Of a stretch of 64,000 nt of DNA, positions 18,153 through 61,630 are shown in pieces. Both the position numbers and the translations under genes were made by a program. How positions within the stretch are numbered: the stretch's first letter is position 1; each line of letters starts with the position of its first letter. The notes beneath the pieces are model-generated. The model ran no database searches, was not told the origin of the DNA, and saw only the letters and a list, made by a program, of their open reading frames with translations. The stretch comes from Mesostigma viride (taxonomy: Eukaryota; Streptophyta; Mesostigmatophyceae; Mesostigmatales; Mesostigmataceae), in assembly GCA_009746045.1 (NCBI GenBank), contig RPFO01000213.1, forward strand, positions 412,564-476,563, given 5' to 3'.

Positions 18153-20440
18153 CCGCAGCTGCAAAATGGCAGTAAACCACTTGGAATTTATAACAGTTTG
18201 GTTGCCACCACGTGTCACATAGTATTTCGGATGCCGCGCCACTTGTGAAGGTGAAATATAGTGGCCCAGAAGGCTCATTGGGGAAAACTTAAGGACAAAG
18301 GAAATTCATAGGTTTGGCGGGTGACTAGTACGAGTTAGTCAAGTCTCCCGCCTATAGTAGCCTAAGTGGACACGTGTCCTGAAGTACTGTACCACCGGCA
18401 CCCAATTGGGTACTGGGACGGTACTGGACTAGAGTAGCTGTGGCATGTACACGTGGCTGTACTTACTATGTGATGAGCCGGTACCTCAGTACATACTTAC
18501 CGGGACTGTAGTTGTCATGTTAGGACTGACCAGATCAGGTTGTAACGGATAGGCTAGTCCGTCACAGATCAGTAAGTTAGAGTTAACTTACGCAAAGTCT
18601 GGCCAGCCATCGTTGACGGCTGGCCAGCAGTACATATGCCATTCTATATCCTTACGCCAAGGTGTCTCGTCTGCCACACTTGATCCATTTGTCATTCTCT
18701 GATTGCACTCAGTGCCCACCGAGGTCTGTGTTGCCATAACTTGCATTAAAAAACCCACAAAAACAACGTGCGTGCGACGAGCACACAAAATAGACAGATT
18801 TGCGACCTTCGTCTCCGTTTTTACACCATCCCACAAAATGTCGCACAACCAGTCGAACAAGGGTACAGTAGGGCGGTCAAAACCGCCAGCTCCAGTTCTC
18901 CGACGTCCTCCTCATTGGGGACGTCCGACTCGGAGATTGCGGCCAAATTTTGGACGACGACAACTTTTGAGACCAAATTGGCTGGATGTCACCCCTCATT
19001 AGACGTATTCAGGATGCTTGATACTACAGTACTGCATATTCTGAAAGCCCTTGAAGTCTAGATAGTAAAAAGTGTTGTTTGAGGTCATTTGGAGTAGGTG
19101 TTGACCAGTGAGTTCTGATTATTTCCATTTTCAGGGGCCTGAAACTGCCAAGAAATTTGGCAATACCGACCGTGGGTGAAGCAGGTGAACTCGTGCCCTG
19201 CCACCGCGCATCTGCCATACATACACATATACTGCATGGCCATTATCGTAGTATAGAGCTTTGACATGGCTCTGTATATAGGTTTATAGCCGGGCGTTTG
19301 CTTTGGTTTGAGTGATTTCACTCTGCTGTAAGTAATTATATTTTTAATACATATATTGCATGGAAACACAACACCCACCTGTGAGAACTATATAAATACA
19401 ACGATGGCCACATTTTAGTATGAATATAGTTACGACTACAGTACGTCGAAAGACAAGAACAGAATGCCGTGTGAGAGGTCCGGCGCTATTACCCATCAAT
19501 CCGCCTGCACGATACCCCAGCCGCGAAGAACCAGATCTCGCATCCGCGCAGCCATTGGGGCATCCGTTAGGTACCAGCAGTGCTCATGCCGTCGTAATAA
19601 TCCTTTATCGCCCCTCGTCAACTAATGAAAGCCAGGCGCAAACCCGCTTTAGTTGATACCAACAGTGGGGTACCATCCACGCAAGAGTCATGAAGTTTAC
19701 ATAGGAGGAGGAACAAATATGTAGCGACCAAGGGATGCGATGTGTAGAGGAGTCCACGCGGCTCTGAGGGAACACGAGTACAGAACATCTTAGTAGAGCG
19801 TGCTTACACGCAACCGTCTGACCACCATGCCTGAGGGAAGCATTACGGCCAGTTTCCTAACGGGAATTTTACCATCACTATGTACATACTCGACTGTCAC
19901 GAGTGCAGCTGGGTCCACAGTGAGCCACAGGATCCAATATCATACATACGGTGCACATATGGGGTTCCGTTAGGGGCATTGGCAGGAAAGTACAGGTACA
20001 AGAGCACCACAGGATCCAATATCATACATACGGTGCACATATGGCCCGGTTCCGTTAGGGGCATTGGCAGGAAAGTACAGGTACAAGAGCAAGATGTAGC
20101 GAAACATGCAAGTGGTAACAAATGGTGATTCACCTCCACAGTCTTTAGTTACTATTTCTCTGTCAACGCATGGACAGAGGAATGAACATGGAGCTTGATC
20201 TCTCTGCCTATGCATTTGCAGAGGACGCGAATCACCTAGTTGCTAAGCCAGTATGCCAGTGACGGGAAAAATTGCCAAGAAGCGACCTTTCGGAAGAAGC
20301 CTCGCTAACTCCCAGGTTCCTGGTTACTAGTTTTATGTACTTTACTAAGAAACAAAGAGCTAGGTCTACCCTAGCACTGCAGGGCTGCTGGACATACATA
20401 ATAATTGACCCTTGATACAGAGGTCAACTGACGACCCAAT
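18153..20440. other. Repeat-derived DNA without a clear gene
   Basis: About 18,950-19,178 resembles 53,800-54,003 (shared catattctgaaagcccttgaag and the following 130 bp), so it is probably the right end of another copy of that TTAA element, with its TTAA decayed. A hairpin ctggccagcc...ggctggccag lies near 18,600-18,628. At 19,922-20,087 two copies of an 80-bp unit stand in tandem (each starting cacaggatccaatatcat). No protein domain was recognised. Confidence 0.45.
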
Positions 20441-20446
20441 GCTTAC

Positions 20447-20600
20447 AGATGTGTTAGGGACGTCAAAAAACCCAGCTCAGGTGGGATGGTGCCGGTCAGG
20501 GTGTTGCGATTCAGCCAGCTGCCGGCAAACGTACCATTCATCAGCCAAGCGATGATGGCACACGCACATGCACGGACAGGGAAAGTCAGTGTGCAGTGTC
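20447..20600 (-). CDS. Leucine-rich-repeat exon, unit 1
   Basis: The minus strand reads NTLTGTIPPELGFLTSL and then a splice-donor-like GTAAGC directly after codon phase 2 (exon edge near 20,447). The pattern is the plant-type leucine-rich repeat L-x-G-x-I-P-x-x-L-G-x-L. The frame stays open upstream to an ATG at 20,775 and passes through a hydrophobic start (MAYLVVYAVAVLWFVC) that could be a signal peptide, although similar DNA elsewhere does not preserve it. One repeat per exon with conserved donors suggests a multi-exon LRR gene family. Here only the exon and flanks are found, so it is probably a gene fragment. The upstream limit given is arbitrary. Confidence 0.55.
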
Positions 20601-21061
20601 CAGGACGCAGCATACCAATGCACAACAGTAGAGAAATGGATGGGTCGATTGCGAGCCATCCAATGCGTTGTTGAACAGTAGTCATGCTGGCCCACTGCTC
20701 AGCTGACCGTGCTGGCCCACCCACACTACATACGAACCACAGGACGGCGACAGCATACACCACAAGATAGGCCACATATGGATCGCCTGGTAAGATCAGT
20801 CCATGTGCAGCAATTGTTGAACAGTCAGGTGTCCATCAATAAGAATGCCAGTTTCCACGCCTAGGTAAGCCTTTCCACGCACACACACAGAAACCATCTC
20901 TGGTGCAGTTTGAGGGATGATGTGAGCAAACAAGCAGGGCAGGGCTCCGCTTGGCTGCATGTGTGGTTTTAGGTATTCAATGCGAACGACATGGGCTGGT
21001 GTGGCCTGTGGGGCATTGGAGCAAGCACAGGTTAACAAGAACATGATGACGGGTCGCTCAC

Positions 21062-21150
21062 ATCTCTGTCAGGAACCTCAAAGACGCCAGCCAAGGTGGG
21101 ATGGTGCCAGTCACCCCCAGGGTATTTGCGGAAGCACCGTAACCCAGATT
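21062..21150 (-). CDS. Leucine-rich-repeat exon, unit 2
   Basis: The minus strand reads LGVTGTIPPWLASLRFLTEM, then GTGAGC as splice donor at 21,056-21,061. Upstream DNA matches that of unit 1, including cactgactttccctg and catgatggca blocks, so units 1 and 2 are a tandem duplication. The motif is more diverged (PPWLASLRF for PPELGSLTS). Confidence 0.5.
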
Positions 21151-22259
21151 GCTGCCGGCAAACACCATTCATCAGCCAAGCAATGATGGCACACGCCCAT
21201 GCACGAACAGGGAAAGTCAGTGTGCAGAGTCCAGGACGCAGCATACCAACAGCAGAGAGATGGATGGGTCAATGGCGAGCCATCAAATGCGTTGTTGATT
21301 AGTAGTATGATGGCCCACCGCACAGCTGACAGTGCTGACTCACTCACAATACAGGGGTCACCCGCAGTATCGCAACAAGAATCACAACTCAAAAAAAAAA
21401 AAATTATCATCCACTTCGATTAACCCAGGCAGGTATGGGCACACCATGGCACCTTCACTTCTCAAAAGTGATGTTTGGATGAGAAATGGGAGCGTGCTCG
21501 AGTATCGCAACACCTAGTTCCGCAACTGAAAACCCACCAATTCTAGAGTTCCGCAATGCAACAGAATCACAACAAACCTGGCAATCATACCAAAAGTACG
21601 CCGTACACCTGCGCCGGAAGGAATAAATTGTCGCCAATCGGCGTGCAGGTTCCGATATGTACATACTTGCAATAGTTAACGCCGTTGACGATTGATTTGC
21701 CGCGCGGTGTTCAGTTCAGTTCAGTGCATGGGATTCACGCGCGGAAGTCAGTGCAATAATGAACAAAAACAAAAGTGTGCCGCCTCATTGAATAATCAAC
21801 GACCTGTAATTAGTCTACAACCACTAACCTTTCGTTATCAAACAGTTCCCTATTCATCACGCGCGTCATCGTCTCGTCATGGCGCGTCATTACCCCGTTA
21901 TTGTCCCGCCGACATTACACAGCTATGGTCTTGAGGTATAGTCGGCGCCGTGCCATGTTAAGCAAACTGCGTTGTCTCATTCGCAGTGTGGTTTCATTAT
22001 GTCGCTCTTTCGAACGGGGATGCATTAGGCAACAATACTGGACAGATTCTGAAAGAGGGCGTGTTTGTGAAGTGGGGATGGCAGCGGCCCAGCATTTGCT
22101 GGCCGTGCGGGTGCAACTTTGAGGCGACTACATACATATATCGCCCTGAACCGTCTTTGTTAAAGCGGTGAGACAGTCCAGTGTTACAGTCTGGCCGCAG
22201 GCCGGGCAAGGGAAATGCTGTGTTCACCATGATGCTGCAGGCCGAGGATGGGTGGCTGC

Positions 22260-23035
22260 ATGGAAGCGTGAATGCTTGCATCGAATGGATGGCGGTGTCT
22301 GCAAGCATGGATTGCACGTGAATGTTCGCAGGATGGGTGGCAATTGCGTGGATGCTCGCAGGATGGGTGCTAATTACACGAATCGATATTGCATTAATGC
22401 TTGCAGGGATGGATGGTGTTTGCATGCATGGATACGTGAATGCTTGCGTGGATGGATGGTGTTTGCATGCATGGATGCGTAAATGCTTGCAGGCATGGGT
22501 GGTGTTTGCATGCATGGATACGTAAATGCTTGCAGGGATGGATGGTGTTTGCATGCATGAATGTGTGAATGCTTGCATGGGTGGATGGTGTTTGCATGCA
22601 TGGATGGGTGGTGTTTGCATGCATGGATACTGTACCTGAAAGCTTGGGGTGGATGGTGTTTGCATGCATGGATACGTGAATGCTTGCATGGGTGGATGGT
22701 GTTTGCATGCATGGATGCGCGAATGCTTGCACGGATGGGTGGTGTATGCATGCATGGATACGTGAATGCTTGCCTGGGTGGATGGTGTTTGCATGCATGG
22801 ATACGTGAATGCTTGCACGGATGGGTGGTGTTTGCAAGCATGGATACCTGAATGCTAGCATGGATGGATGGTGTTTGCATGCATGAATGTGTGAATGCTT
22901 GGGGTGGATGGTGTTTGCATGCATGGATACGTGAATGCTTGCGTGGATGGATGGTGTTTGCATGCATGGATGCATGAATGCTTGCTGGGATGGAAGTGAT
23001 TGCGTGCATGGATACGCGAATGCATGCATGAATGC
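22260..23035. repeat. Minisatellite, unit about 41 bp
   Basis: About 18 imperfect units built on ggatggtgtttgcatgcatg followed by gatacgtgaatgcttgc, with length variation from lost sub-blocks. Each unit carries the palindrome tgcatgca. Three reading frames of the minus strand remain open through it only because the unit lacks stops, so they are not genes. Confidence 0.93.
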
Positions 23036-24766
23036 GACCTAGGACAATGTAAGCACCTTTTAGGGATTAATATAGTGGTGAATATGGGCAGGCCCCCTGA
23101 CCCATGTGAGTCATACATGTATTCAAGGAGACAACGATTCCAGTCCATGGCAGGATATATAAAGGATACCAACCCCAAGTCGGTGGGGGTATGCATGTGA
23201 CCCAATTCAGTACAAGTGTAATAACAGTGATTCGGGCCGTGGCGCCAGCAACCCTGTCACTCAAGGTTACATTATAGATACTCATTCCATCTCCGCCTCC
23301 ACATCATTGAGGATGTATGTAATTTACGCGACAACTATTAATGGTCGCATGGTGGTCACGTGACGCCTGATCAACGCGTAGCGTCTGCGTGTCGTAATTT
23401 AATTTTTTAATATTAATGCACAGTCACCATTTTACCGCGCGCTGGCCTGCACTTAACCCTTGGATGACCAGTGTGTAACTCTACCCCTAATTATGGCTGG
23501 TTGCACCTTGCATGATAATGTCCAGAAACCAGCCTGATAACAATCTAGTGTCCATACTGGGACCAAAGCACACGCATATGTATAGGGAGTTACTTCGGGG
23601 TCATGTCATTAGTCATGTTGCAATGTCCTATCTATGGGTGCTAAATACAGCACTAATCTCAGGGGGGTGCACGGGTGCGATAAAAAAGACACTTACAATG
23701 CAATGTTAAGTGATAATACAATATTGGACGTCTTCACAAACCAAGGCCCAAATGCACACGTAGCAAGGGGTTGCAAGGGGCGGTGTTACCCATGCATCCA
23801 GAACATGAGAAATGACCTCCATATGCATGCCTAGGATGAAAATATACAAACACTGCATCGAACTTCTTTTCTACGTCAGCAAGGCACTGGGGCCTCCATA
23901 GATGTTGCATGGACTGCACACCTGCACAGGCGTCCTTTACTAGCAAAGCCAAAAGGCTGACATCAAACTGGCCATGATACCATCTTTCCTGAAGAATTTA
24001 GGCAATAGAAACCATCGTGCTACCATCTACAACTTTTTCATCTGGATGTTAAATCAATCGTCATTCTAGAAAATTAGGTACAGACGCAGCTAATCATGAA
24101 CAAAACTGACGAAAATCTTACGACGACGGTTGTACAAAACCACAACTACAAACTAGTACACAGGAGTAGTAAGCTAGCGAACTTAACACCACAAACCTTC
24201 AACAACGTGTCCGAGACTACTTACCGAATGATATAACGACTTTACCTTGTTGACGGTATCCGCAGGTACACTAAACTGCGCCATGCCAACACCGCAAAAA
24301 GAAGGCTAGCGGAAAGCTAGCAATCTCATGACAGAAAGGCAATCTCATCACTGCGTCGAGACTTTCCTGGCCCTGAACGATGATGAAATACGCGAAATAC
24401 ATCATACGATAACTACTGGTTGCGAAAAATTCAATGATACAGAAGCTAATAACAAGTGCTACCTTTCATCGTCACCCCCGTGATGATTAACGCGTGTAGA
24501 CGCAGTAAAAACCAGCCCGAGATAATGTGCGCTTCATTAGATGTTGCGCGACTGCGGCTATAGCATTTTTCTGACGCCGCTCATTTCAGTTCGGTTGATT
24601 CTTCGCGCCGGTCAGCCAAGGAGTGACATTGACATTCTTCACGTCGGGGTGTATCTTTAGTTGCGATACCACGCGTTGGCCGATTCGCAAGTTTTCGTCC
24701 AAATCGGTCCGCGCAAGAATCAGAACAAAAGTGTTTTTTGGTCCGCCTGGAAAGTTGCGTAGTTGC
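23036..24766. other. Interior of the TA-flanked element, including a lone TTAA-element end at 23,453
   Basis: TTAACCCTTGGATGACC at 23,453 resembles a TTAA-element start, and 23,500-23,680 matches, inverted, the right part of the TTAA-family DNA at 44,000-44,130. The opposite terminal repeat was not found. No gene was recognised in the rest. Confidence 0.45.
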
Positions 24767-24798
24767 GATTCTTGTTGCGATACTGCGGGTGACCCCTG

Positions 24799-25130
24799 TA
24801 CTGTACGTACCACAGGACGACGACAGCATGCACTACAAGATAGGCCAGATTGATCGCCTGGTCAGATGAGTCCAGAGCAAGTGTTGAACAGTCCAGTGTC
24901 CATCAATAAGAATGCCAGTTTCCACGCCTACAATAGGTAAGCCTTTCCAAACACACACACAGAAACCATCTCTGGGCGAGTTTGAGGGATGATGTGAGCA
25001 AACGGGCAGGGCAGGGCTTCGCTTGGCAGCATGTGTGGTTTAACCAGGTATTAAATGCCAACCACATGGGCTGGCTTGATTCGTAAGATATATTTGGGGC
25101 AAGCACAGGTTAACAAGCACACGATGAAGG
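24799..25130 (-). repeat. Flank of LRR unit 3 (duplicated non-coding part)
   Basis: Matches the DNA between units 1 and 2 (20,740-21,050) in the same orientation, for example ggatggacac/caataagaatgccagtttccacgcc and acacacacagaaaccatctctg. It shows that the duplicated unit is larger than the exon. Confidence 0.7.
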
Positions 25131-25200: not shown

Positions 25201-25670
25201 TAGACTCAAGGTCACTGTGATGGCAAATGCACAAGCACCGACAGGGTCAGTGAAAGTCGGTGAAAGTCAGTGTGCAGTGTCCAGGACGCAACACACCCAA
25301 GCACAGACAAGAAATGGATGGGCAATGAGCCACAAACCTCTTGCACTATGATTGTTGTACGCACATGCAATCAAACTAAAACCGGGCCCACAATATATCA
25401 CGAAGAGTTCAATGTGAGGTGAACGCACAGGGCACTGTTGCTCTCTACCGCTACACAGTACCGCTCACACATTCACATCCACACGGTCCGTGTGCAAGGA
25501 TGCCAGACTTGCAGTACCCATTGATTAGTGCGCACAGCATGGAAGCCAATCCAAGCTCAGGTCAGCTAGGCAAGAACACATGGGACAAGAAGCACGTCTA
25601 CATATGCGGTGACTATGTAGCGCCACACGTAGACTAGTACTGTACTGTAAGTGCTAGTAAGTAGTAGAAT

Positions 25671-26044
25671 CAGTCCCGCCTTAAGTTCGGTACACCGGTT
25701 TATTTGCCAGGTAAACCAAACTTAAGGCGGGAACCCAACTTAAGGCCTAAAGTTACCATAGTTGCGACCCCCAGCCCTGCTGATGGACTTCAGGGTGCGT
25801 TTTGGTAGCTCTTGTCACGGCCGATCCAACTGCACTAAAGAATACACCGCCAATGTTGTAGTTCGTTTTGTAACTTGGATGCAAGTCATGTAACTGTAAC
25901 CCCCCACAGGTGAAGCACCACAGAGCCAATCCTGCATTCCAGACGAGGCGCCTAAAGTTGCGCTCGCCATGCCGCTGACCGCGACCCAACTTACATATGT
26001 CAGGAGGCCGGAGCTTAACTTAAGAAAACCCAAAGGCGGGACTG
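25671..26044. mobile_element. MITE with CAGTCCCGCC ends, copy 1
   Basis: A 374-bp segment bounded by CAGTCCCGCCTT and its complement AAAGGCGGGACTG. It has an internal small palindrome (ggtttatttgccaggtaaacc) and inner aacttaaggc repeats. The CAG start fits hAT or Tc1-like MITEs. A target duplication is not clear. It is part of the tandem LRR unit and was duplicated with it. Confidence 0.6.
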
Positions 26045-26163
26045 AGTCTGTACTTACTATAGCAAGTTAGTTATCCTACATACAGTAGCACTGCACTGGG
26101 CTGCTGGACATACTAAGATATTCAACCAGTGGCGCACAGGTTCACTGACGACCCATAACTCAC

Positions 26164-26260
26164 AGATTAACAAGGGACGTCAAAGACCCCAGCTCAGGTG
26201 GGATGGTGCCCTCCACATCGGACGAGTCATACATACTCCTGCCGGCAGACACCATGCACC
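26164..26260 (-). CDS. Leucine-rich-repeat exon, unit 4
   Basis: The minus strand reads DVEGTIPPELGSLTSLVNL, followed by GTGAGT at 26,158-26,163 as donor. The open frame continues upstream to an ATG at 26,369 through sequence shared with the other units (RHCTLTFPVGACAFAIMA). Likely an exon of a fragmentary LRR gene. Confidence 0.6.
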
Positions 26261-26695
26261 AGCGGGCCATGATGGCAAATGCACAAGCACCGACAGGGAA
26301 AGTCAGTGTGCAGTGTCTAGGACTCAACACACCCAAGCACAGACGAGAAATGGATGGGCAACGAGCCACAAACCTCTTGCACTATGATTGTACGCACATG
26401 CAATCAAACTGGAACCGGGCCCACAATATATATCACGAAGAGTTCAATGTGAGGTGAAGGCACAGGGCACTGTTGCTCTCTACCGCTACACATTACAGCT
26501 CACATGTATCCACATCCACACGGTCCGTGTGCAAGGATGCCAGACTTGCAGTACCCAATTAGTGAGCACAGCATGGAAGCCAATCCAAGCTCACAACTGG
26601 TCAGGCAAGAACACATGGGACAAGAAGCACGTCTACATATGCGGTGACTATGTAGCGCCACACGTAGACTAGTGAGTGCTAGTAAGTAGTAGAAT

Positions 26696-27070
26696 CAGTC
26701 CCGCCTTCAGTTGGGTTCGCCGGTTTATTTGCCGGGTAAACCAAACTTACATAAGGCGGGAACCCAACTTAAGGCCTAAAGTTACCATGAGTTGCGACCC
26801 CCAGCCCTGCTGATGGACTTCAGGGTGCGTTATGGTAGCTCTTGTCACGGCCGATCCAACTGCACTAAAGAATACACTGCCAATGTTGTAGTTCGTTTTG
26901 TAACTTTGATGTAAGTCATGTAACTGTAAACCCCCCGCAGGTGAAGCACCACAGAGCCAAACCTGCCAAACGTAGTGCATTACATTGGGCTCACCATGCC
27001 GCTGACCGCGACCCAACTTAAGGCGGGAGGCGGCCGGAGCTTAACTTAAGAAAACCCAAAGGCAGGACTG
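26696..27070. mobile_element. MITE with CAGTCCCGCC ends, copy 2
   Basis: A 375-bp near-copy of 25,671-26,044 at the equivalent place of the next tandem unit. One base of the right terminal repeat differs (ggcaggactg). Confidence 0.6.
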
Positions 27071-27327
27071 ACTGTACAAGTACTGGTAAGTTAGTTATCC
27101 TAGCACTGCACTGGGCTGCTGGACATAGATATTTAACCAGTGACACACAGGTTAACTGACGACCCATTACTCACAGCAGTTGCCTCGCTAACTCCCAGGG
27201 GCCTGGTAGTTCTACTTTACTAAGAAACAAAGAGCTAGGTCTAGCCTACTGTAGCACTGCAGGGCTGTTGGACACACATAATTGACCCTTGATACAGAGG
27301 TCAACTGATGACCCATACATAACTCAC

Positions 27328-27420
27328 AGTTCAACAAGGGACGTCAAAGACCCCAGCTCAGGTGGGATGGTGCCGCTCAGGAGGTTGTCATCCAAGACCC
27401 TGCCGGCAGACACCATGCAC
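27328..27420 (-). CDS. Leucine-rich-repeat exon, unit 5
   Basis: The minus strand reads DNLLSGTIPPELGSLTSLVEL, then GTGAGT at 27,322-27,327. This is the best-preserved repeat of the set. The frame opens at an ATG at 27,530. Upstream non-coding DNA (27,540-27,840) duplicates that of units 3 and 4. Confidence 0.62.
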
Positions 27421-27857
27421 AAGCGGGCCATGATGGCAAGTGCACAAGCACCGACAGAGAAAGTCAGTGTGCAGTGTCTAGGACGCAACACACCCGAGCA
27501 CAGACTAGAAATGGATGGGCAATGAGCCACAAACCTCTTGCACTATGATTGTTGTACGCACATGCAATCAAACTAAAACCGGGCCCACAATATATCACGA
27601 AGAGTTCAATGTGAGGTGAAGGCACAGGGCACTGTTGCTCTCTACCGCTACACAGTACCGCTCACATGCATCCACATCCACACGGTCCGTGTGCAAGGAT
27701 GCCAGACTTGCAGTACCCAATAATTAGTGCGCACAGCATGGAAGCGAATCCCAGCTCACAACTGGTCAGGCAAGAAACACATGGGACAAGAAGCATGTCT
27801 AGTACATATGCGGTGACTAATATGTAGCGCCACACGTAGCCTAGTAAGTGCTGGTAA

Positions 27858-28070
27858 TTATTATAAATAGTGACCGAACCTTTTTGCCAATTGGGCCATT
27901 AGGTTCGTCACTATTTATCCGGCGTAAACCACTCGCCAGTATGTATCAATTCCGCGACACGTTCTCGTGAACGTGGCGCGGAATTGATACCGGCGAATTG
28001 TTTATGCCGGATAAATAGTGACGGACCTAGTAGCCCAAGTGGCAAAAAGGTTCGGTCACTGTATATAATA
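27858..28070. mobile_element. Palindromic MITE, copy 1
   Basis: A 213-bp fold-back element: the arms start ttattataaatagtgaccg and are complementary to the centre, with cgttctcgtgaacg at the middle. Its right end is altered (cactgtatataatactg). The other copies are 28,282-28,499 and 37,627-37,838. Confidence 0.8.
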
Positions 28071-28136: not shown

Positions 28137-28649
28137 CTGCACTACTGAATTTCGCCTTAACGATATTCCAACCGGGCATTTTCCCCTTCTGGCGCTTTCG
28201 TTTGGCCTTCTGGTATAAATCCTTCCGGTGTTCGAAAATACCCGTGTCACCACAGGGAGCCCCCGACTTACGAGGTCTTAGTTATTATAAATAGTGACCG
28301 AACCTTTTTGCCACTTGGGCCATTAGGTCCCTCACTATTTATCCGGCGTAAACCACTCGCCGGTATGTATCAATTCCGCGACACATTCACGTGAACTTAA
28401 CGCGGAATAGATACCGGCGAGTGGTTTACGCCGGATAAATAGTGACGGACCTAATGGCCCATTAAAGTGGCAAAAAGGTTCGGTCACTATTTATAATAAC
28501 TAAGACTTCGTAAGTCCGGGGCTCAAATCCCTGTGGTGAAACGGGTATTTCCGAACACCGGAAGGATTGATACCAGAAGGCCAAACGAAAGCGCCAGAAG
28601 GGAAAAATGCCCGGTTGGAATATTGTTAAGGCGAGATTCAGTACTGCAG
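28137..28649. repeat. 513-bp palindrome centred on palindromic MITE copy 2
   Basis: Flanks of 145 bp on either side of the MITE at 28,282-28,499 are inverted copies of each other (for example ccttctggcgctttcgtttgg against ccaaacgaaagcgccagaagg), so the whole region can fold into one long hairpin. Each flank contains a tRNA-like box B and arm (cgtaagtccggggctcaaat), which suggests a tRNA-derived sequence. Confidence 0.8.
28282..28499. mobile_element. Palindromic MITE, copy 2
   Basis: Arms start ttattataaatagtgaccg. Only one arm contains an extra TGTA (ggtatgtatcaatt against the partner aattgatacc), which points to an insertion after the element formed. Confidence 0.82.
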
Positions 28650-31968: not shown

Positions 31969-33128
31969 GTACGCCATCCCCTGTAAATAGTCAGTCACCC
32001 CTTGGGGAAGGTGTGTTGGATGTACATAAGGATAGGGGTGTGCCCCTTGTGCAGCACCAAGGGTGTAAAGATGCTGTTCTTCCACTGGATTGCAATGACA
32101 ATGCTGCAGCTGAATTCCTTATTCCTCGTGCAGGTGGTGGTGGGTCTCCAGCAGGTGCTGGCCAGGGAGGCCAAGGGACCTTGCTGGAAGGGCCTGGTGC
32201 GGTTCAGGGAGCAGGAACTGGCTCTGGGAGTCAGGAGGGCCTGCAGAAGAGCCCTGGAACCACGGGCGTGGATCATGTGTCCCCACACACGGTTCAGACG
32301 TGTCGCCAGGTCAGTACTGAGAGAGTGCTGAGCTAATAATGCTGAGACTGGCTATAAGTTGCACCATATGTTTGGCCATTATGGGCAGGCTGCCATGTTT
32401 GCCTGAAAGCTAGGGAAAGTGCCTTTGTGGGAAGCCTGCCAGGCTGCTGCTGTCAGAGAACTGTGGATGCCAGGAGAATGCTGTTCACCCACCACAGTCC
32501 CATGCTAGGGAGCCAGCTAGGGAGCGTGGCGACATCCAGGTGGATATCCAGCATACATATCAGGGGCTTATATATATATATTAGTGGGGGTGGAGAGATT
32601 CAGTAGATATAGGCTGATAGACGTTCTGCCTGGTATGCAGGAGCATCACTTACTGTTGGGTCTGAAGGCCCTGGTCCCAGGCTTTGGGGTGTGCAAGAGT
32701 GTGCAGGCAGACTTGCAGTTTGACTGTTGCTCAAGCACCAGGACCAGCTACCTTGTAAGCTGGTGGTAGTCCCCAGGGAGAGCCATGGGCAGCAACTTGG
32801 GGCTGTAGGGAGATCCACACGTGAAGTCAAGACGGTGGTGCTAGCAGCAGAGACAGTGCCACTTGTGGCATCTGCCTTAGAGAGAGCAGCCTGGTGTAAG
32901 GGGATAGAGGAGCAGCTGAACCACAGAGTCAACTATTACATACTATGATGGTGTAGCTGTCTCTCCCCCGGCCCTGCAGTACAGCTTATTACCTGAGAGG
33001 GTGGTGCAAGCCAGTCTTAGAAAGGCAGACAGGGTGTTTGCCCAGCTGAGACGTAAGCGGACAAGAACTGGGGGTCTTTCACAGGGCCAGAGAAGGCAGG
33101 CCTGCCACCTTAGGCCCACGCGCCTCTC
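31965..33128 (+). pseudogene. pol: Integrase region of Copia-type element 2, broken
   Basis: After a linker in frame with gag, LHHMFGHYG near 32,360 matches the zinc-binding HHCC start (LHKALGHG in element 1). VERFSRYRLIDVL at about 32,590 matches the block after the first catalytic Asp, and ADLQFDCCS at about 32,710 matches CDQQFECC with the second Asp. The first block is split by a run of TA repeats at 32,570-32,582. The Glu region is recognisable only in another frame. Several stops make this non-functional. Confidence 0.65.
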
Positions 33129-33480: not shown

Positions 33481-33867
33481 AGAAGGCAGAGGCAGCCTCC
33501 CCCTTGAAAGATAATATCACTATTCCCAGGGTCTCGCTGTGGCGGTCAAGGCTGTTAAGAGTCAGCAGGTTGAGGGTCCCCAAGGTCAGGAGCCCATAGC
33601 TGAGGACCTGTTGATTATCCCAACCACCTTTGATCCACGGCAGTTGGGGGTAAACAGGTACCAGATAGCTGCTCACAGTCCTATTCCCTAGCGCCAACTA
33701 GTTGAGAATCATGATGCAAAGCCCCAAGATGGCTAAGGCATGGACTCTTGGCTTTGTAGCCTCTGGGCATGAGTGGATAGTTTCCAACTGTGCAGAACAT
33801 GTGGATGAGCTGCCAGAAGTTCACCAGCTGCTCAGATTGATGTTTGTCCTCAAGCTCAAGCTAGGAG

Positions 33868-35240: not shown

Positions 35241-35910
35241 GAGGATAAAGGTTGCTAGCCAGCAGCCTAGGGTCATTCCAGCCAGCAAGACCAGGAGCTC
35301 ACAAGCTCTGCTGGCGAGTTGCTGTGCAAATGTAGGTGCTGAGAGTGTGGTGCAGGCTGTCAGGATGTCTCCCCCTCTTATACTGGGTCCTGTGGATTTG
35401 TACAAGCCCCTTGACATGGTTCTCTATGTGGACAGTTCTATGGACAATAGGAAGGTCACAGAGGTCAGGGGCAGAGCAGCAGCACTAGTTACCCTGGAGC
35501 AAGACCATACCTCTCTGGTCACCTGGTACAGTCGGTTGCAAAACAGGGTTACGCCCAGCAGTGATATTGCTGAGTGCAGGGCAATTTGTGTGGGGCTGCA
35601 TGCTGCTCTTTATGTACTTGAGGGAGCTCTTCTACCAGCTGTGTCAAGTGGCTTCGTGTAGATTGCAGCTGCACACACTGGTGAGGACTGACAGCATGGG
35701 CATGGTGCAATCTGTGCACAGGCAGCTGGCCAGGATCAAAGATCTTGATTATCTGTTGCTCAAGGAGATGTCCTACCTACAGTAGCTCACATTGAACATG
35801 TGCCTGGTGTGGACAACCCCGCAGATGCCCTCACCAAGCTGGAGGAGAAGGAGGAGCGGCAGTACCCTCTGCTCCGTGGGCTCATGGACCCTTTGCATGG
35901 GAGGCCATAG
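35241..35910 (+). pseudogene. pol: RNase H of Copia-type element 2
   Basis: MVLYVDSSMDN, TWYSRLQNRVTPSSDIAECR, LVRTDSMGMVQSV and DLDYLLLKEMSY follow in order with one frame change near 35,650. NPADALTK is recognisable as DNPADALTKL at about 35,814-35,843. This matches RNase H of element 1 block by block. Confidence 0.75.
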
Positions 35911-54436: not shown

Positions 54437-55260
54437 CCCGACGGCTGTATACGGCTGATTGTGGACAACCGTCGCGGCAACATGCCAATATACCAGATGT
54501 TATGCCCGCTTTTCTACCACACCTTGGCGTGATTTGCGATTTGCCCACGCACACTGGGGAGGATGTTTTGGGGGGCGTATCAGATTTGGATTCCTACTAT
54601 ATACAACAGACTCCGCCTGCCCGATTGGATGCGGCGGTACTGTGCCCATGTGGTCGGATCTTGTGGGCCTTAGTGGGGCACGTCGGAAGGTTTGGCCGTG
54701 GATGTTGTGCTGGCCAACGGGAAACAAGCTGGCAGTCGCTGTGGCCCAGTGTGTGCACCAACTGTCTGTGCTCTACCACTGTGGCCCCAAGCGGTCCCCC
54801 GTTGGAGGCTCTAAGTCGTGGCACCTGAACATCGACATGTCAGCGCTGATCCTGGTGGCGGAGGCTAACGAGGCGGGGCAGACCGTCCGGCTGAGGCTGA
54901 AGGAGGACCCTGCTGCGCCCTTGGGGCCCTCATCGTGCTTCGAATCTCGGCAGGATCTGGAAGGTATGCATGTTGTGACTATGGATGACCTCCTGATCAC
55001 CCACTGTGCGTCGGTGGATGGAGTGAATCAGCAGCAAGATTGTGTTCAGGCTGCCTACGCCACTGTTGGGCTGGTGCAGAAGTCTGACAAGATGGTACGG
55101 GGGACAGCTGAGCAGACTGCTGTGCAGGCGGTGGGTGTCATTCACCAAAGAGATGGTGACGTGGTGCCTATTCCTGAGCGTGTGGTGGCGGTTATCGCTG
55201 CTACTCATAGAATCTTGGATCGCAGACTTACATACATACTACAATACCGCGAACTTGTTC
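54437..55260 (+). pseudogene. Reverse transcriptase of the DIRS-like element
   Basis: Directly after the hAT insertion the DNA reads PDGCIRLIVDNRRGNMPIYQ (RT fingers block). In another frame, VVTMDDLLITHC carries the catalytic Asp pair (54,984-54,989), followed by YATVGLVQKSDKM and AVGVIHQRDGDVVPIPERVV, the usual block order of DIRS RTs. The N-terminal piece lies before the hAT element (48,480-48,667, ANGTFGVGK). Several frame changes are present, and one TA-rich insert at 55,228-55,241 (acttacatacatac) falls within the thumb. Confidence 0.75.
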
Positions 55261-55279
55261 TGTGCTTGGGAAGTGGGTG

Positions 55280-56040
55280 TGGGTGCATCTGCAGTGCCGC
55301 CCCATGCTCTCGGGGTGGTCTGGGACGTATCGGCTGCTAGCAGCCATGAACACCTCCCTGCCTGGGCGCCGCTGGCGGCTGCCTGAGGGGGCCTGCCGGG
55401 AGCTTCAGGCGGTGATCGACCTCAGTGGCCCCCTTTTTGAAAGGCTGCCAGGGCCCGGCCCCTTTCTGACCGGGTCGTCGCAAGTGATGCAAGCAGCTCC
55501 GGCGGTGGGGTGGTCTGCAGGGACCTACCTGGGGCCGATTGTGCCCGGCGAGCTCGCCCCGGCGCGAAGCACGGGGGTGGCAGACGACAGCTTTAACGTC
55601 TGGGGAGGACTGGGACCTGGTCACCTGGAGCGCATGGAGGAGGGGCACTACAGCCTGCTGGGCGGCACCTGGCCACTGGCGTACGGCACAGTCTGTCCTA
55701 TAGATGTACAGGTGCATGGCGGGAGCAGCTTAACCACATCAACGTCAAGGAGGCGATTACTGCGACGCAGGGGGTCGAGTGGTCGTGCCGGACCAAGGCG
55801 TGTCCAGGTTTATGTAAGCGAGTCGTCCGGCTCGTGGACTCTAGTGCTGTGGTGGGGGCGGTTGTCAGGGGGCGGTCGTCTTCCTATGTACATGTATACC
55901 GACTCAACCAGCTGGTTCGGCGCTACTGCGCTCTGTCAGTGGCTGGCGACATGCAGAGCCACTGGGTCTGGGTGGCTACCGACCACAACCCAGCTGACAA
56001 GGCCAGTCGGCGTGGCGCCTGGATTCCTGACTTGACCCGG
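55280..56040 (+). pseudogene. RT connection and RNase H of the DIRS-like element
   Basis: GKWVWVHLQCRPMLSGW, then RRWRLPEGACRELQAVIDL, is the connection typical of DIRS/green-lineage elements. RNase H has HINVKEAI, RLVDSSAVVGAVVRGRSSS (catalytic Asp) and WVATDHNPADKASRRG (final NPAD-SR). An in-frame extra YVHVY (tatgtacatgtatac, 55,885-55,899) splits the conserved GRSSS-RLNQL block. Confidence 0.78.
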
Positions 56041-56070
56041 TGTGGTGACGTGCATCCCAACCCTGGGCCA
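56041..56070 (+). other. 2A-like peptide motif (CGDVHPNPGP) in frame between RNase H and recombinase
   Basis: The sequence matches the 2A 'stop-carry on' consensus D-V/I-E-x-N-P-G-P except for His in place of Glu. It lies exactly at the domain border, so it could separate RT-RNase H from the recombinase during translation. Cleavage activity is inferred, not shown. Confidence 0.55.
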
Positions 56071-56605
56071 GAGGGGGCGCGACGCCCTCGGGACTCGGCA
56101 CTTTTGGAGGGCACGGTCAACCATGTGTCTACCTTGCCAGCGTACCGGCGCGTAGTGGCTGTCTACGTGGCCTGGGCCCCACCTGGCCCCGTCGACCCAG
56201 CTGACGCGGAAGCCGTTTTCTGTGAGTGGATTTCTGCTGTCTACCATGCCACCAGAGGGGGGCGGGGGCGTACCTTATGCTCGCACGCCAAGGCCTGTCT
56301 GCACCTGTACTACCCCGACATTGTTCGGAATTGGGTACTGGCGGACCGGCGCCTGCTAGCAGGTTGGCAGCCGCTTGTTCCGCGGCTGTAAGCCCTCCGC
56401 CTATGCCCTGGCGCCTTTGCAAAATTCACTGCCCTGTTGAGCACTCGTTTCACGTCGACAGGTGCATTTGAGCGCGTTGATTATTATTGCTTTCCAGTGC
56501 TCAGTATTTGTACGCATTGGCGAGGCGCTAGGGCTGCGGGTTCGGGATGCACATGGCCCATCCTGGCCACCCCCTTTTCAATCCAGGGCCCACAGCCGGT
56601 GCCTT
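56071..56605 (+). pseudogene. Tyrosine recombinase of the DIRS-like element, N-terminal part
   Basis: The N-terminal helical domain (AYRRVVAVYVAWAPPGP, CSHAKACLHLYYPDIV) is open until 56,391. After a frame change, FVRIGEALGLRVRD (about 56,507-56,548) carries the first catalytic Arg (56,513-56,515). The protein is interrupted by the Copia at 56,606 and resumes at 63,216 (FNPGPTAGA | LVLRNPKTARG). Confidence 0.75.
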
Positions 56606-57439
56606 TGTTGGAAAGGTAGAGGAAACTAATGGGTTTTACACAATGCCTTTTGCTTGGCCTTGCTACCCTTGCACCTTGCAGGTGATGAAAGACTGAGCTT
56701 GAAGACTTGAATGGAAGAGAGACCAGAAAAAGAGCTTTATGTCATACTAGGTTTAGAGGTTAGGAAAAGAGGCTCGATGGAGGTTCAATGGAGGTACCTG
56801 CCCTTAGGGGGCAGTTTCCTTTTCTACCTTTTTAGGCTAGGAAGGATGACATCAGCAATGACATCATCACATAAGCTTGTAGAAACATCCTAGCATATTC
56901 CTAGCACATTCCCAGCATATTCGTAGTGTATTCCAGGAATATTCCTGGCGTACTCTTAGAACATTCCTAGAACATTCTAGACATGATCCAATGAGCTGAC
57001 ATAGTAGCTAGATGCCAAGTGTCTATGTACGTAATAATGTGCCATGCACATAACATGATTAATAAAGTGACCCATCTCTTCTCCTTGGAGTGACAAGTGT
57101 CATGCAATGAGTCTACCCACTTGTCATCATGTAAGTCATAACATGTGTCATCGTGAGCTGCGAACACTTCAATGTCAGCTCATGGACCGAACACTTGTCC
57201 ACTAGGCCATAGCACCAAGTGCTTGTCAATCAAATACGTGATGCTACTACAAAGGCTGACTCAGGGTACAAGTCATCTATGTCCAAGTATAGGACTATGG
57301 CACATGAATATTGATCAGCTCATTGAGCCCAATCCATCTAGCTTATCAAAGCTATCAAATTCCCAGTCCATATGGAATAAATCCAACAAGAAATAAAGCT
57401 GGGATATATTGTGGCCAGGTGGATATAATATCCCTAACA
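56606..57439 (-). repeat. 3' LTR of Copia element 3
   Basis: 834 bp. It contains an extra TGTA at 57,026-57,029 compared with the partner LTR. Confidence 0.9.
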
Positions 57440-58844
57440 CCCCCCTTAGCCACATGGGCACAATGCAAAAGATGTCTGGGTAGGTGGAATCTCAACAACC
57501 CCCTTAACCACATGCTCATAGCATGCCGTCAAGTTGCTACCATGGTGCAACTGAAAATGAAGATGCCGTCCACGTGAAACGCTTGAAGCTCCAGCATGCG
57601 GTCGTGAGCCGCACTGTCTAGGTACCGCTCCTGATCCCCCCCCGGCAACGCGAATGAGTGCCCTACCATATGTAGCAGCAACGCACTACAGTGTAGCTGC
57701 CCATCAATCCTGGATGGCTGTTACCCAACCCTTGGTTGGAAAAAGTGCTCTAGATGCTACATTCCCTCTCACTCAAAGCGGCTGCCCATGGACACAACAG
57801 GGGCACACAGTCCCACACATATATTAAGGCAACACATGCCAACAAAGAAGGTCCCTATGTATGAGCTAACCCAAACGGTAGAGAGGTACCTAGGGTAACG
57901 GCAAGTTACGTCACGTGCTGTACACACACGTCCGGAGCAACATAACATACGCCATATCTCACAAAATAAATGACGCCAACATCACGTTTTACGCCAAATA
58001 AACGGGGTGAGCAAACAAACATGGCAACAAATGCCACACAAACAACTAGGTGCAATACAACCTTCAACACAAAATACAGTGGCCATAACAGATAAACGCG
58101 CTTCATAGCAAAGAAAACAGGACGTGCAAAACAATACCGCCACAAAAGGCGAACACAGGTAACGATTACTTCGTCACGATTCACAAATCAGTGCCCGAGA
58201 GTAAACATAACGTCCGACATTACAGGCTATGCCGAAATGCACAGCCTGACTCGACACAAAGGACGGAAACATTTGCATACAAGCAATGCTCTCAGCACAA
58301 AACAAAATAACACACACGTCACAGGCACCTAACTTAGAAAAACAAGTCGTAGACGACGATACAACGGCGCTTCACTACGCTGCAAACTAGTGCCACGAAT
58401 AGCGTGCAAAAACTCTGGATATGTATACACTCCAGGTACGTAGAAAACGTCTCGTGGGAACAATGCCAAAATGCGTGGGCCATTGCTATTGAACGCATGG
58501 CAAAATAAACACATACAGTAACTGCTGGAAGAACACAAAGAAAGAACCAGAAAACGCACGCTTACGGCGCCTCACGAATTCCAGCAAACACGACACAAAA
58601 GTCGACATACAAGTGAATGTCCCACAGACAAAACATTAGGGCAACCTTGAGAAGTGGGGTCTGTGCATCCTGGGCGACAATTTCCAAGGGTCGTTGCAGC
58701 TAGCGCAAGTGCAAATGGCCTGGCCGAACACCGTCAACTGACCGACGTGATGCCTAGCTTGGCAGCATTTTGCAGTCGACTTGACCGTTGGTGTTTGACA
58801 GCAGTGTGGCTGACAGGTCGCTGTCCACGTCGTGGTCGGCTCGC
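57440..58844 (-). other. Interior of Copia element 3 without recognised domain
   Basis: This is where integrase and RT would be expected, but neither is present. The plus strand is rich in A and C (cacacgtcac and similar), and minus-strand frames at 57,906-58,184 and 58,329-58,559 are hydrophobic or basic but unlike known proteins. It may be replaced or captured sequence. Confidence 0.4.
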
Positions 58845-59440
58845 TCAAGGCCTCGCGCCAGCACCGGACTTCGCAGTCCAGGACTTGGAAAAATTTTGCA
58901 GCTTGGTCGATTTCGCCCTCGCGCCACGAATTCGTTCCCCCTCAGTTAGGCTGGCAGCGTTAGAGCGCCGCGCCTTTGGTCTGGTCGCCGGACTTGGGTT
59001 ACTAGCACCAGTGTCACCTGGTATGCTGGCGGCGACAACGGGCTCCGCCTGCACTGGGCTGTTCTGGACCGCGGTTTCTGGAAGTACTTCAGCGTCTGAC
59101 ACGGACTTCTCCATGGCGCTGGAAACTTCCCGAATCGGCGTGAACTTCCACTGGGCCGGCGCTGAGCATATAAAGCCACGCAGTGTGCGAGTAATGCCCA
59201 GTGGGCCGTCCCGATCCCGCGTACACGGGCAAGCATGGCCAGTATGACCATTAGGCCCACGGCCAGCCACTCCGCCGCGTGTCTTGAGGCACGTGAGATG
59301 CTGCGCTCGCTGCTCGCCATTTTCTGCCCTTGACAGGCAGCGTCGACGTCCTTGAAGCTCGTCGCCGATGATTTCAGCTCTGGGATGGCATCCATCGCTG
59401 CGTCTGCACCGCGCGCGGGCAAAAAGTAGGCGTTGTTCCT
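58845..59440 (-). pseudogene. Remnant after the protease of Copia element 3
   Basis: The minus strand reads, in two frames, MCNVDLAKRVAVLDSRPCSI (gag-pre-integrase-like) and then a Pro/Ala/Ser-rich part (VLPETAVQNSPVQAEPVVAA) ending at a stop at 58,845. Integrase catalytic residues are not found. Confidence 0.45.
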
Positions 59441-60120
59441 CGTCACGATGCTGCAGGGCCTGCTGTCCAGCACAGCAACCCGCTTGGCGAGGTCGACGTT
59501 GCACATGGCCATCCTTGACGAGCTGGCCGACAGATAAAAGTAGGGTGCTCAGCTTTGGAACGAGCAGTGCGTTTTGGAGGTGCACGTCTGCCTCCTGGCC
59601 CGGAAGCTTCAGCTCGACAGTCCCGATGGCTGTCGCCTTCAGTTTGCCGCCTGAGCGGGCGATTTCCCTGTTGTGAGGGTGCAGGCATGTGCACGAAATC
59701 TGACGGGCATGGCGTCATGTGACAGCTTTCTGCAGAATCCAGCACCCAGCTGGCCGGCGCCTTCTTTTCATATTGCGTGAGTGCTGCAGTGTCCGGCGGC
59801 AATGGCGACTCGGCAATGGTGGCGAAGACGAAGCCAGACGGCAGCTCTGCAGCCTCCTGGGTGATGTGCGCCTCTCTGGCACCTGGTGAGTGCTCCTTTC
59901 TCGCCTCTGATGTGATGGACATCGCGTGGTTCCGTCGCGTCGCCTTCTTGCGTTCTTGCTTTAGCTCTGGATGCGTCTCCCAGCACTGGGCCTCCACGTG
60001 CCCGAGCTTCTTGCAGTGATAGCACCGCTTTCCTCCACTTTTCTTGGTAGTAGTGTGAAAAGCCTGGCCGTCCGATGAGCTTTCCTTCTTTGCTTCAGCA
60101 GAACGCCCTCCCATCAGCAT
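59441..60120 (-). pseudogene. pol: Zinc knuckle and protease of Copia element 3
   Basis: Minus-strand frame from 60,120: CCHC knuckle CYHCKKLGHVEAQC (about 59,983-60,024), HPELK, ELPSGFVF, then ASWVLDSAESCHMTPC, the Copia protease motif (normally W-I-L-D-S-G-A), here with Ala for Gly at the active site. The block VHLQNALLVPKLSTLLLSVG follows in another frame. This is the canonical gag-protease order, unlike elements 1 and 2. Substitution at the active site and frame changes suggest it is inactive. Confidence 0.78.
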
Positions 60121-60155
60121 GCATGTCCTCCGCCTCCAGCACCGCAGCCTTGACC

Positions 60156-60760
60156 TCAGGACTCCAAGTTGTCCTCCTCCTTGAAATGCACCGATATCAG
60201 CGCAGGGCGATATTTGTCTGGCAGGCCGCTCTTGAGAATGGCTGCGAAGTCTTGGTCGCTCACGACTCCCCCCACAGCACGGTACTCCGCCAGCAGCAGC
60301 AGTCCCCTTAGGATATACTGCCCCATGGTCTCCCCTGGCTTCATTTGCAGCCTGTGCAGCTGGACCCTGAGGTCCATCAGGTGGCTCTTGGTGAGCTTTT
60401 GCTGCTCGTAGACCTCCCTCAGCGTCTTGTAGAGCTTGCTGCCAGATTAGTCTGGCACGAGCGATAGGATGCGCCTCGCTTCTCCAATAAGTGCAGCTGA
60501 GATGACAAGGCCGACAGCCATGTCAGCCTTCCAAGGGGTCCTCCTTGGTGCCAAGCAGGACATCCTTGACCCCGTATGTAGAAGCGACAAAAGCCCTCAA
60601 GGGATGTCTTGGTCTCCTCCCAGCCACGTAAACTTGTGCCGTCAAATTTCAGCACAATCTTGGGGCACACATTCAGCATAGGAGTGTAGTCCACCTCGCT
60701 TGCCATGGAGCTTGCAGCTGGGCTGGGTTTCTTAGTGGTCTTCTTGGAGCTCATGAACAA
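60156..60760 (-). pseudogene. gag: Gag (UBN2-type) of Copia element 3
   Basis: Starts at minus-strand ATG 60,760 or 60,754, 14-20 bp after the LTR and primer site. It contains LKFDGTSLRGWEETKTSLEG and, in the next frame, MKPGETMGQYILRGLLLLAE and GLPDKYRPALISVH, which are typical UBN2 gag blocks. A frame change near 60,400-60,640 breaks it. Confidence 0.75.
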
Positions 60761-60773
60761 TCCTCCAATACCA

Positions 60774-61630
60774 TGTTGGAAAGGTACAGGAAACTAATGG
60801 GTTTTACACAATGCCTTTTGCTTGGCCTTGCTACCCTTGCACCTTGCAGGTGATGAAAGACTGAGCTTGAAGACAATGGAAGAGAGACCAGAAAAAGAGC
60901 TTTATGTCATACTAGGTTTAGAGGTTAGGAAAAGAGGTTCAATGGAGGTTCAATGGAGGTACCTGCCCTTAGGGGGCAGTTTCCTTTTCTACCCTTTTAG
61001 GCTAGGAAGGATGACATCAGCAATAACATCATCACAGAAGCTTGTAGAAACATCCTACATATATATACATCCTGTAGCATATTCCTAGCATATTCTTATA
61101 GTATATTCCAGGAATATATATTCCTGGCATACTCTTAGAACATTTCTAGAACATTCTAGACATGATCCAATGAGCTGGCATAATAGCTAGATGCCAAGTG
61201 TCTACGTAATAATGTGCCATGAACATATGTAACATGAATAAAGTGACCCATCTCTTCTGGACTTGGAGTGACAAGTGTCATGCAATCAGTCTACCCACTT
61301 CTCATCATGTAAGTCATAACATGTGTCATCGTGAGCTGCAACACTTGTCAGCTCATGGACCAAACAGGCAAACACTTGTCCACTAGGCCATAGCACCAAG
61401 TGCTTGTCAATCAAATACGTGATGCTACTACTAAGGCTGACTCAGGGTACAAGTCATCTATGTCCAAGTATAGGACTATGGCACATGAATATTGACCAGC
61501 TCATTGAGCCCAATCCATCTAGAGAGGTTATCAAAGCTATCAAATTCCCAGTCCATATGGAATAAATCCAACAAGAAATAAATCAGGCTGGGATATATTG
61601 TGGCCAGGTGGATATATAATATCCCTAACA
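60774..61630 (-). repeat. 5' LTR of Copia element 3
   Basis: 857 bp. Compared with 56,606-57,439 it has an extra TGTA near 61,228-61,231, a 19-bp TA-rich insert at about 61,056-61,074 and other short insertions. Confidence 0.9.

What the first reader, a model, noticed from the sequence alone, without database searches (positions are those of the whole stretch)
20334..61231. Tc1/mariner-type excision scars scattered through duplicated sequences
Seen directly: when duplicated segments are compared, many differences are extra bases next to a TA, giving TA-TG-TA or TA-CA-TA (4-bp insertion) or TA-CTG-TA / TA-CAG-TA (5-bp insertion). Examples: 57,024-57,029 (TATGTA) against TA at 61,202; 61,226-61,231 against the other LTR; MITE arms 27,940-27,945 and 28,364-28,369 against 37,708; 20,334-20,339 against about 27,215; 27,316-27,321 (TACATA) against about 26,155; 25,638-25,649 (TACTGTACTGTA, two scars in a row) against 27,844. 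One site has three states: CCTAGCACTG (20,371; 27,101; 37,877), TACTGTA (27,247-27,253) and TACATACAGTA (26,077-26,087). Known: Tc1-like elements excise leaving 2-3 end bases between duplicated TAs. Inferred: two element types (2-bp and 3-bp scars) were very active here.
Basis: partly seen in the sequence, partly recalled or inferred. Interest (0 to 1): 0.87.

Follow-up and report, generated by a model that had tools for sequence, protein, structure and literature searches.

The report
Transposon excision scars in algal DNA
In this stretch of a green alga's genome, jumping DNA pieces that insert at TA appear to have come and gone repeatedly, leaving two or three of their end letters behind; scars of this kind are known, but here some spots were hit more than once and a likely source of one scar type is still in place.

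Summary
In detail: all cited motifs are in the window. Among 18 TA-bounded 4-bp indels in its alignments, 14 have CA or TG inside, as do all 10 that cannot be simple tandem duplications (P 8e-7 to 1e-4). At two cited sites 97 of 100 and 99 of 100 listed genome copies are plain TA, so the scar is derived. The window (Mesostigma viride) holds a 3,447-bp inverted-repeat element, 21,352-24,798, ending in CAG, the 3-base scar. At least 100 genome ends of its family follow TA; 2 lack the T. A second TA-flanked family, two copies seen, ends in CA, the 2-base scar. Best reading: Tc1/mariner-type excision with two offsets and repeated visits.

Limits: no transposase is linked to these elements, no excision was observed, and some examples may be tandem duplications. 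Outside the window clear TA scars are rarer (2 of 366 indels against 9 of 151). There a different 4-bp class, XY to XY-rc(XY)-XY, outnumbers them and looks like hairpin (P-nucleotide) repair.

The parts
21352..24798 (+). Non-autonomous TIR element (3,447 bp), ends CAGGGGTCACCCGCAG..., first 38 bp of the two ends match at 37, 43-bp minisatellite inside, no transposase-like ORF seen; candidate source type of CAG/CTG scars
   Evidence: genome ends
21350..21351 (.). Left TA of the element
24799..24805 (.). Right TA of the element directly followed by CTGTA: scar TA-CTG-TA abutting the element
20727..20732 (.). Paralogous site without the element, reading TACATA (2-base scar) at the same place (position counted by hand from the alignment)
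   Evidence: Flank-join alignment
57024..57029 (.). TATGTA scar in LTR; the only scarred one of 100 listed (of 234) exact-flank genome copies
61226..61231 (.). TATGTA scar in the other LTR
20334..20339 (.). TATGTA scar against TA in paralog near 27,213
25638..25649 (.). TACTGTACTGTA double 3-base scar
26077..26087 (.). TACATACAGTA compound scar (CA then CAG) at the three-state site
27247..27253 (.). TACTGTA, middle state of the three-state site
26748..26753 (.). TACATA scar against TA in the tandem unit at 25.2-26.2 kb
27316..27321 (.). TACATA (also explicable as tandem duplication of CATA)
27940..27945 (.). TATGTA in repeat arm (possible tandem duplication of GTAT, possibly copied with 28,364)
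28364..28369 (.). TATGTA in repeat arm; of 100 listed (of 171) exact-flank genome copies 97 are plain TA, 2 TATA, 1 (this one) TATGTA
22628..22634 (.). TACTGTA inside the element's own minisatellite
35611..35616 (.). TATGTA scar against L019
35778..35784 (.). TACAGTA scar against L019
7102..7107 (.). TATGTA against inverted paralog at 41.5-42.5 kb (71% identity)
6173..6178 (.). TACATA against the same inverted paralog
23577..23582 (.). TATGTA inside the element against paralog near 44 kb (75% identity)
32554..32559 (.). TACATA against L019 (also explicable as tandem duplication)
32937..32942 (.). TACATA against L019
40039..40044 (.). TACATA against L021 (72% identity)
33859..33862 (.). Palindromic 4-bp insertion (AAG to AAGCTAG), second indel class; the only long one of 100 listed (of 417) exact-flank copies

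Best explanation
The 4- and 5-base insertions at TA are repair scars of DNA transposons that insert at TA and leave by cut-and-paste. A transposase cuts one strand at the TA/element border and the other strand 2 or 3 bases inside the element. After excision each flank carries the TA plus a short single-stranded stub of the element end. Joining the flanks keeps one stub, giving TA-CA-TA or TA-TG-TA (2-base offset, elements ending CA) or TA-CAG-TA or TA-CTG-TA (3-base offset, elements ending CAG). The same TA can be entered again, giving compound scars and a filled site beside an older scar. Shown: derived insertions of these sequences at TA; elements with TA on both sides and matching terminal bases, one in the window; a filled site next to a scar. 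Inferred: that these particular element families made the scars, the cleavage offsets, and end joining as the repair route.
For: All cited alleles verified. Window TA-bounded 4-bp indels: 14 of 18 have CA/TG inside, and 10 of 10 with under 4 bases of ambiguity; null 0.222-0.326, P 8e-7 to 1e-4, and 3e-7 to 1e-5 for 10 of 10. 5-bp: 3 of 4 CTG/CAG (P 0.004-0.010). Ancestral state at two sites: 97 of 100 and 99 of 100 listed exact-flank copies are plain TA, of 171 and 234 in all. Element with CAG ends in the window; TA plus its first 22 bases has 188 genome matches at up to 2 mismatches (reversed control 0), the 100 listed exact, while only 2 ends lack the T. Joined flanks of 20 fetched pairs, the window and L044 are 22 distinct sites. 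CA-ended TA-flanked elements L013:7282-8076 and L007:892-1364. The same target site holds TACATA in one paralog and element plus TACTGTA in the other. Compound scars at 25,638 and 26,077. Sleeping Beauty's consensus footprints are TACAGTA and TACTGTA (PMC4378557, passages).
Against: No transposase was linked to either family: the 3.4-kb element has no transposase-like ORF by eye (no family search run on it as a whole), and none of the hits lies between paired ends listed (compared by eye; 88 of 188 ends are not listed, and only 150 of 184 candidates were scored). No excision of a known copy was observed. Outside the window only 2 clear 2-base and no 3-base scars among 366 indels. Only the window copy of 22 elements abuts a scar. 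The 22 TA-flanked sites were chosen by a pattern containing TA, so they do not test TA by themselves; searches do. The CA-ended family is known from 2 copies; its genome census did not complete (last try).
Confidence: 0.8

Rival explanations
1. Microsatellite slippage or short tandem duplication of TA/CATA/TATG units: the extra four bases copy an existing unit.
For: 4 of the 14 CA/TG events in the window (27,316; 27,940; 28,364; 32,554) have 4 bases of ambiguity, so a single unit could have been duplicated. TATA alleles also occur (2 of 100 listed; 7 two-base TA rows).
Against: 10 of 14 have only 2-3 bases of ambiguity: the aligned short allele has no copy of the 4-base unit. The compound CA+CAG at 26,077 joins two different units. 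3 of 4 TA-bounded 5-base insertions carry CTG/CAG.
Confidence: 0.1
2. A general 4-bp insertion process of break repair (for example hairpin or P-nucleotide joining) that acts everywhere and happens to include TA sites.
For: A palindromic class XY to XY-rc(XY)-XY is large: 21 of 37 low-ambiguity 4-bp indels (null 0.044, P 2e-19).
Against: That process at TA would give TA-TA-TA, not TA-CA-TA or TA-TG-TA; the CA/TG class stands apart (8 of 37, null 0.0064, P 1e-10). The classes differ in place: TA scars 9 of 151 window indels and 2 of 366 outside; palindromes 2 of 151 and 19 of 366 (P 0.0004 and 0.049).
Confidence: 0.05
3. Assembly or sequencing error.
For: The published assembly used long SMRT reads with optical maps (PMC6947507, passages), if this is that assembly; indel errors are common in such reads (recalled).
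Against: Errors would not favour TA plus CA/TG/CAG/CTG; the same sites are plain in 97 and 99 of 100 listed copies.
Confidence: 0.05

Closest known systems
Sleeping Beauty and other Tc1-like elements with 3-base footprints
   Same: Consensus footprints TACAGTA and TACTGTA (PMC4378557, passages)
   Different: A vertebrate-derived element (recalled); here no transposase is linked, and the ends read CAGGGGTCACCC
Tc1/Tc3-type 2-base footprints (recalled, not from a call)
   Same: Two element-end bases kept between duplicated TAs
   Different: The candidate elements here end CACCCC[CT]CGCATTGG; excision not observed
Stowaway elements in Triticeae beta-amylase intron 4 (PMC1925063, passages)
   Different: Footprints there are fragments such as TACTCC...AGTA; here they are CA/TG and CAG/CTG, seen across repeat copies of one genome
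pogo/Tigger-like elements of this genome (label recalled; PF03184 hits; L041 has TA-CAGGCATTCACGCC upstream of the ORF)
   Same: TA followed by CAG; DDE_1 domain in an open frame
   Different: Sequence differs from the window element after CAGG; no inverted partner end was found in L041; no direct link shown
Ac/Ds hairpin footprints (PMC5873905, passages)
   Same: Palindromic P-nucleotide insertions resemble the second 4-bp class found here
   Different: Ac/Ds duplicates 8 bp (recalled); the class here fits a 2-bp duplication

Membership tests
Tc1/mariner superfamily (element at 21,352-24,798) | Insertion at TA / TA duplication | tested here: met
   At least 100 of 188 genome ends (up to 2 mismatches) have exact TA before the TIR (P 2e-68 if 1 in 16); with the exact TIR only 2 ends have a base other than T two places before it. 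The 22 flank pairs share TA but were chosen by a TA-containing pattern. TA is self-complementary, so duplication and TIR extension cannot be told apart from filled sites alone
Tc1/mariner superfamily (element at 21,352-24,798) | Terminal inverted repeats | tested here: met
   First 38 bases of the ends match at 37
Tc1/mariner superfamily (element at 21,352-24,798) | DDE/D transposase (own or of an autonomous relative with the same ends) | tested here: inconclusive
   No transposase-like ORF by eye in 21,352-24,798; the 8.8-kb copy L044 holds a nested DIRS-like element instead (by eye); 96 DDE_3 and 33 DDE_1 hits exist but none lies between listed paired ends (by eye)
Tc1/mariner superfamily (element at 21,352-24,798) | 2-4 base footprints of element ends after excision | tested here: inconclusive
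   CAG/CTG scars fit the ends, but no excision of a known copy was observed
Tc1/mariner superfamily (CACCCC[CT]CGCATTGG family) | TA flanks and terminal inverted repeats | tested here: inconclusive
   2 of 2 copies, L013:7282-8076 and L007:892-1364, but found by scans that required or favoured TA; genome census unanswered
hAT or other hairpin-forming transposon footprints (palindromic class) | Filled site with matching target duplication | tested here: inconclusive
   A TIR scan with duplications of 2-10 bp gave only chance-like pairs, but it covered 334 kb, pairs up to 9 kb apart, and left out self-complementary flank bases

The most novel reading that the evidence does not exclude
In Mesostigma viride much of the 4- and 5-bp insertion spectrum is written by transposon excision: TA-specific 2- and 3-base scars in hot regions, plus a widespread palindromic class XY to XY-rc(XY)-XY from an unidentified activity that cuts with a 2-bp stagger and is repaired through hairpins, mostly adding two P-nucleotides. 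If so, copy-to-copy comparison of repeats gives a fossil record of excision by element type, and repeated entry into scars could seed (TACTG)n and (TATG)n microsatellites.
Probability: 0.3. Interest if true: 0.65.

Novelty: new member of a known kind. Interest (0 to 1): 0.45.

Why it matters
Scars record excisions, which are otherwise invisible. Here the 2- and 3-base offsets, orientation and repeated visits can be read from repeat copies of one genome, and the ancestral state can be checked against hundreds of copies. It makes it testable whether excision repair, rather than replication error, dominates small insertions in a TE-rich alga near the base of the streptophytes, and whether scars seed microsatellites. 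The palindromic class points to a second, unidentified source of staggered breaks.

Tried and rejected
Slippage as the main cause: rejected for the 10 low-ambiguity events. Enrichment of the bare strings alone: in a 264-kb sample TG/CA between TAs is 2.5-fold and CTG/CAG 3.1-fold over a trinucleotide model, but several other strings are as high or higher (AT 5.9, CG 3.0, TA 2.8; AAT 4.6, TTA 4.4), so string counts are no proof. The 8.8-kb copy as the autonomous element: rejected, it is the 3.4-kb element with about 5.4 kb of DIRS-like sequence inside. The large DDE_3 ORFs as the transposase: no overlap with listed element ends (by eye). A general tendency of the CAG element to sit beside scars: not found, 1 of 22. 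Other elements with short duplications as source of the palindromic class: the TIR scan gave nothing convincing.

Unanswered: genome census of TACACCCCYCGCATTGG (last try) and of TACWGTACWGTA (last try), and the DNA search with window:56606-57442 (last try).

Full report
Source. The RVT_2 ORF at 14,312-16,225 matches a eukprot protein labelled Mesvir1 at 84% identity, and the window lies in a 439.9-Mb assembly as C1:412564-476563; a published Mesostigma viride assembly is 441.8 Mb (PMC6947507, passages). I infer that this is the streptophyte alga Mesostigma viride.

Observation. The alignment of the local repeat family shows the three-state site. Exact-flank matches of that site are 4 in the genome, all in this window; the 27,247 copy has a flank mismatch and is not among them. 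The relaxed alignment census of the window (printed rows, alignments to the window and to fetched loci) gives TA-bounded 4-bp indels with CA/TG 14, TA 3, TC 1; TA-bounded 5-bp indels with CTG/CAG 3, CAA 1; a 9-bp CA+CAG compound at 26,077; a 10-bp double CTG at 25,638; an 8-bp CATACT at 18,490; also 7 two-base TA duplications. (The tally line differs by one TA row, because it keeps one row per position; I use the rows.) The share of CA/TG among all TANNTA is 0.222 in all sequence held and 0.326 in the window, so 14 of 18 has P 8e-7 or 1e-4; 3 of 4 for the 5-bp class has P 0.004 or 0.010. Events with at least 4 bases of placement ambiguity could be tandem duplications; without them 10 TA-bounded 4-bp indels remain, all CA/TG (P 3e-7 or 1e-5). 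These tests take events as independent.

Polarity. Exact-flank allele counts: the repeat-arm site of 28,364 has 171 copies, of which 100 are listed: 97 TA, 2 TATA, 1 TATGTA, the last in the window. The LTR site of 57,024 has 234 copies, 100 listed: 99 TA, 1 TATGTA, in the window. The listed copies are the first contigs, not a random draw. The scars are derived and rare per site.

Source elements. A scan for TA-flanked inverted repeats beginning CA found an element in the window at 21,352-24,798. The first 38 bases of its ends match at 37, and no transposase-like ORF is seen. TA plus its first 22 bases has 92+96 genome matches at up to 2 mismatches, none for the reversed control; the 100 places listed have no mismatch, and by my count 23 pairs among them lie 3.3-3.5 kb apart. 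As a control for TA, the exact 22 bases preceded two places before by a base other than T occur only twice. I fetched both flanks of 20 listed pairs, not of all: with the window and L044 these are 22 distinct sites. Excision with a 3-base offset would leave CAG or CTG. A second family with TIR CACCCC[CT]CGCATTGG and TA flanks is present in L013 and L007; a 2-base offset would leave CA or TG. Its genome census did not complete.

A site with history. Joining the element's flanks and aligning them to the paralog at 20.4-21.1 kb shows CACACTACATACG in the paralog where the filled copy reads CACAATA-[element]-TACTGTACG. One paralog thus carries a 2-base scar, the other a 3-base scar plus an element at the adjoining TA. 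I saw no plain copy of this site in the sequence held, so the order is inferred.

Where scars are. With stricter flanks, TA scars without slippage are 9 (6 two-base, 3 three-base) among 151 window indels and 2 among 366 outside (P 0.0004). Per aligned base it is 9 in 24.0 kb against 2 in 87.5 kb (P 4e-5). The outside bases leave out L010, L015 and L018, while indels from the kept parts of L015 and L018 are counted; they include near-identical transposase loci, so divergence is not matched. The strings TACTGTA/TACAGTA and TATGTA/TACATA are 2.1 and 3.7 times denser in the window than outside. So the region is rich in scars, and the prediction of a strong genome-wide excess is only weakly met in this sample (outside, 5 of 7 TA-bounded 4-bp indels are CA/TG, P 0.007-0.04).

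Transposase. DDE_3 (PF13358) has 96 hits, with open frames of up to 1,388 aa (150 of 184 candidates scored); L030 looks bacterial by eye. DDE_1 (PF03184) has 33 hits, with a 411-aa frame in L041 (E 2.9e-29); upstream L041 reads TA-CAGGCATTCACGCC, a pogo/Tigger-like look (recalled), but no inverted partner was found. None of these hits lies between the listed paired ends of the window's element family, compared by eye. The superfamily label therefore rests on TA, TIRs and scar type, not on a transposase.

Second class. Among low-ambiguity 4-bp indels in 334 kb (window plus 38 loci, after dropping L010 and stretches of L015 and L018), 21 of 37 have the form XY to XY-rc(XY)-XY with XY other than TA or AT (null 0.044, P 2e-19), 8 are TA-CA/TG-TA (null 0.0064, P 1e-10) and 8 are other (events with 3 bases of ambiguity had two chances, so the P values are rough). 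Eleven events of this class are shown aligned. At the window site 33,859 the insertion is derived: 417 copies, of 100 listed 99 are short and only the window copy is long. A 2-bp staggered cut joined after hairpin opening with two P-nucleotides would give this; Ac/Ds footprints show palindromic insertions (PMC5873905, passages). I found no source element. It deserves its own study.

Literature. Sleeping Beauty footprints TACAGTA/TACTGTA: PMC4378557 (passages). Tc1/mariner footprints of 2-4 bp: PMC7913693 (passages). Repeated visits and insertion beside a footprint: PMC1925063 (passages). A search for papers holding 'Mesostigma viride', 'mariner' and 'transposon' in the held library found none, and 'mariner' does not occur in the main text of the two M. 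viride genome papers. A search on microsatellite origin and transposon excision listed 2 papers, neither on point by title and abstract start.

Verdict. The kind of event is known, so the interest is moderate. The palindromic class is the least expected result.

Noticed in passing
window 33,859; 38,073; L022:4989, 5644, 7967; L012:1330, 2708, 2776; L017:3726, 3962; L019:2245; L023:54, 2299, 4477, 5347: Palindromic 4-bp insertions XY to XY-rc(XY)-XY, 21 of 37 low-ambiguity 4-bp indels; derived at 33,859. Looks like hairpin/P-nucleotide repair of a 2-bp staggered cut.
   Followed up: partly
L031-L038 and other places: A multi-copy family of large open frames (up to 1,388 aa) with a DDE_3 domain; several of the fetched copies are near-identical.
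   Followed up: partly
L044:272-5658 (about): DIRS-like sequence (reverse-transcriptase-like and tyrosine-recombinase-like ORFs, by eye) nested in a copy of the 3.4-kb element.
   Followed up: no
L030 (G000:C2011, contig of 1,488,356 bases): Bacterial-looking ABC-transporter and IS630-type sequence by eye on a 1.49-Mb contig; possibly a bacterial associate's sequence in the assembly.
   Followed up: no
   Followed up: no
window 28,876 and 28,955: Two 4-bp insertions in one 96.5%-identical repeat pair of form L-rc(LR)-R (GT|CTAC|AG, TG|TGCA|CA), related to but not identical with the palindromic class.
   Followed up: no
window 2,031; 29,982 and other 2-bp rows: 2-bp indels with 2-bp ambiguity were all TA or AT duplications (7 of 7); may be TA duplications left by excision without extra bases, or slippage.
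   Followed up: no
window 25,218-27,866: Repeated units offset by about 1.05-1.17 kb with inverted CGCCTTAAGTTGGGTT-like motifs shared with the DDE_1-bearing locus L041.
   Followed up: partly
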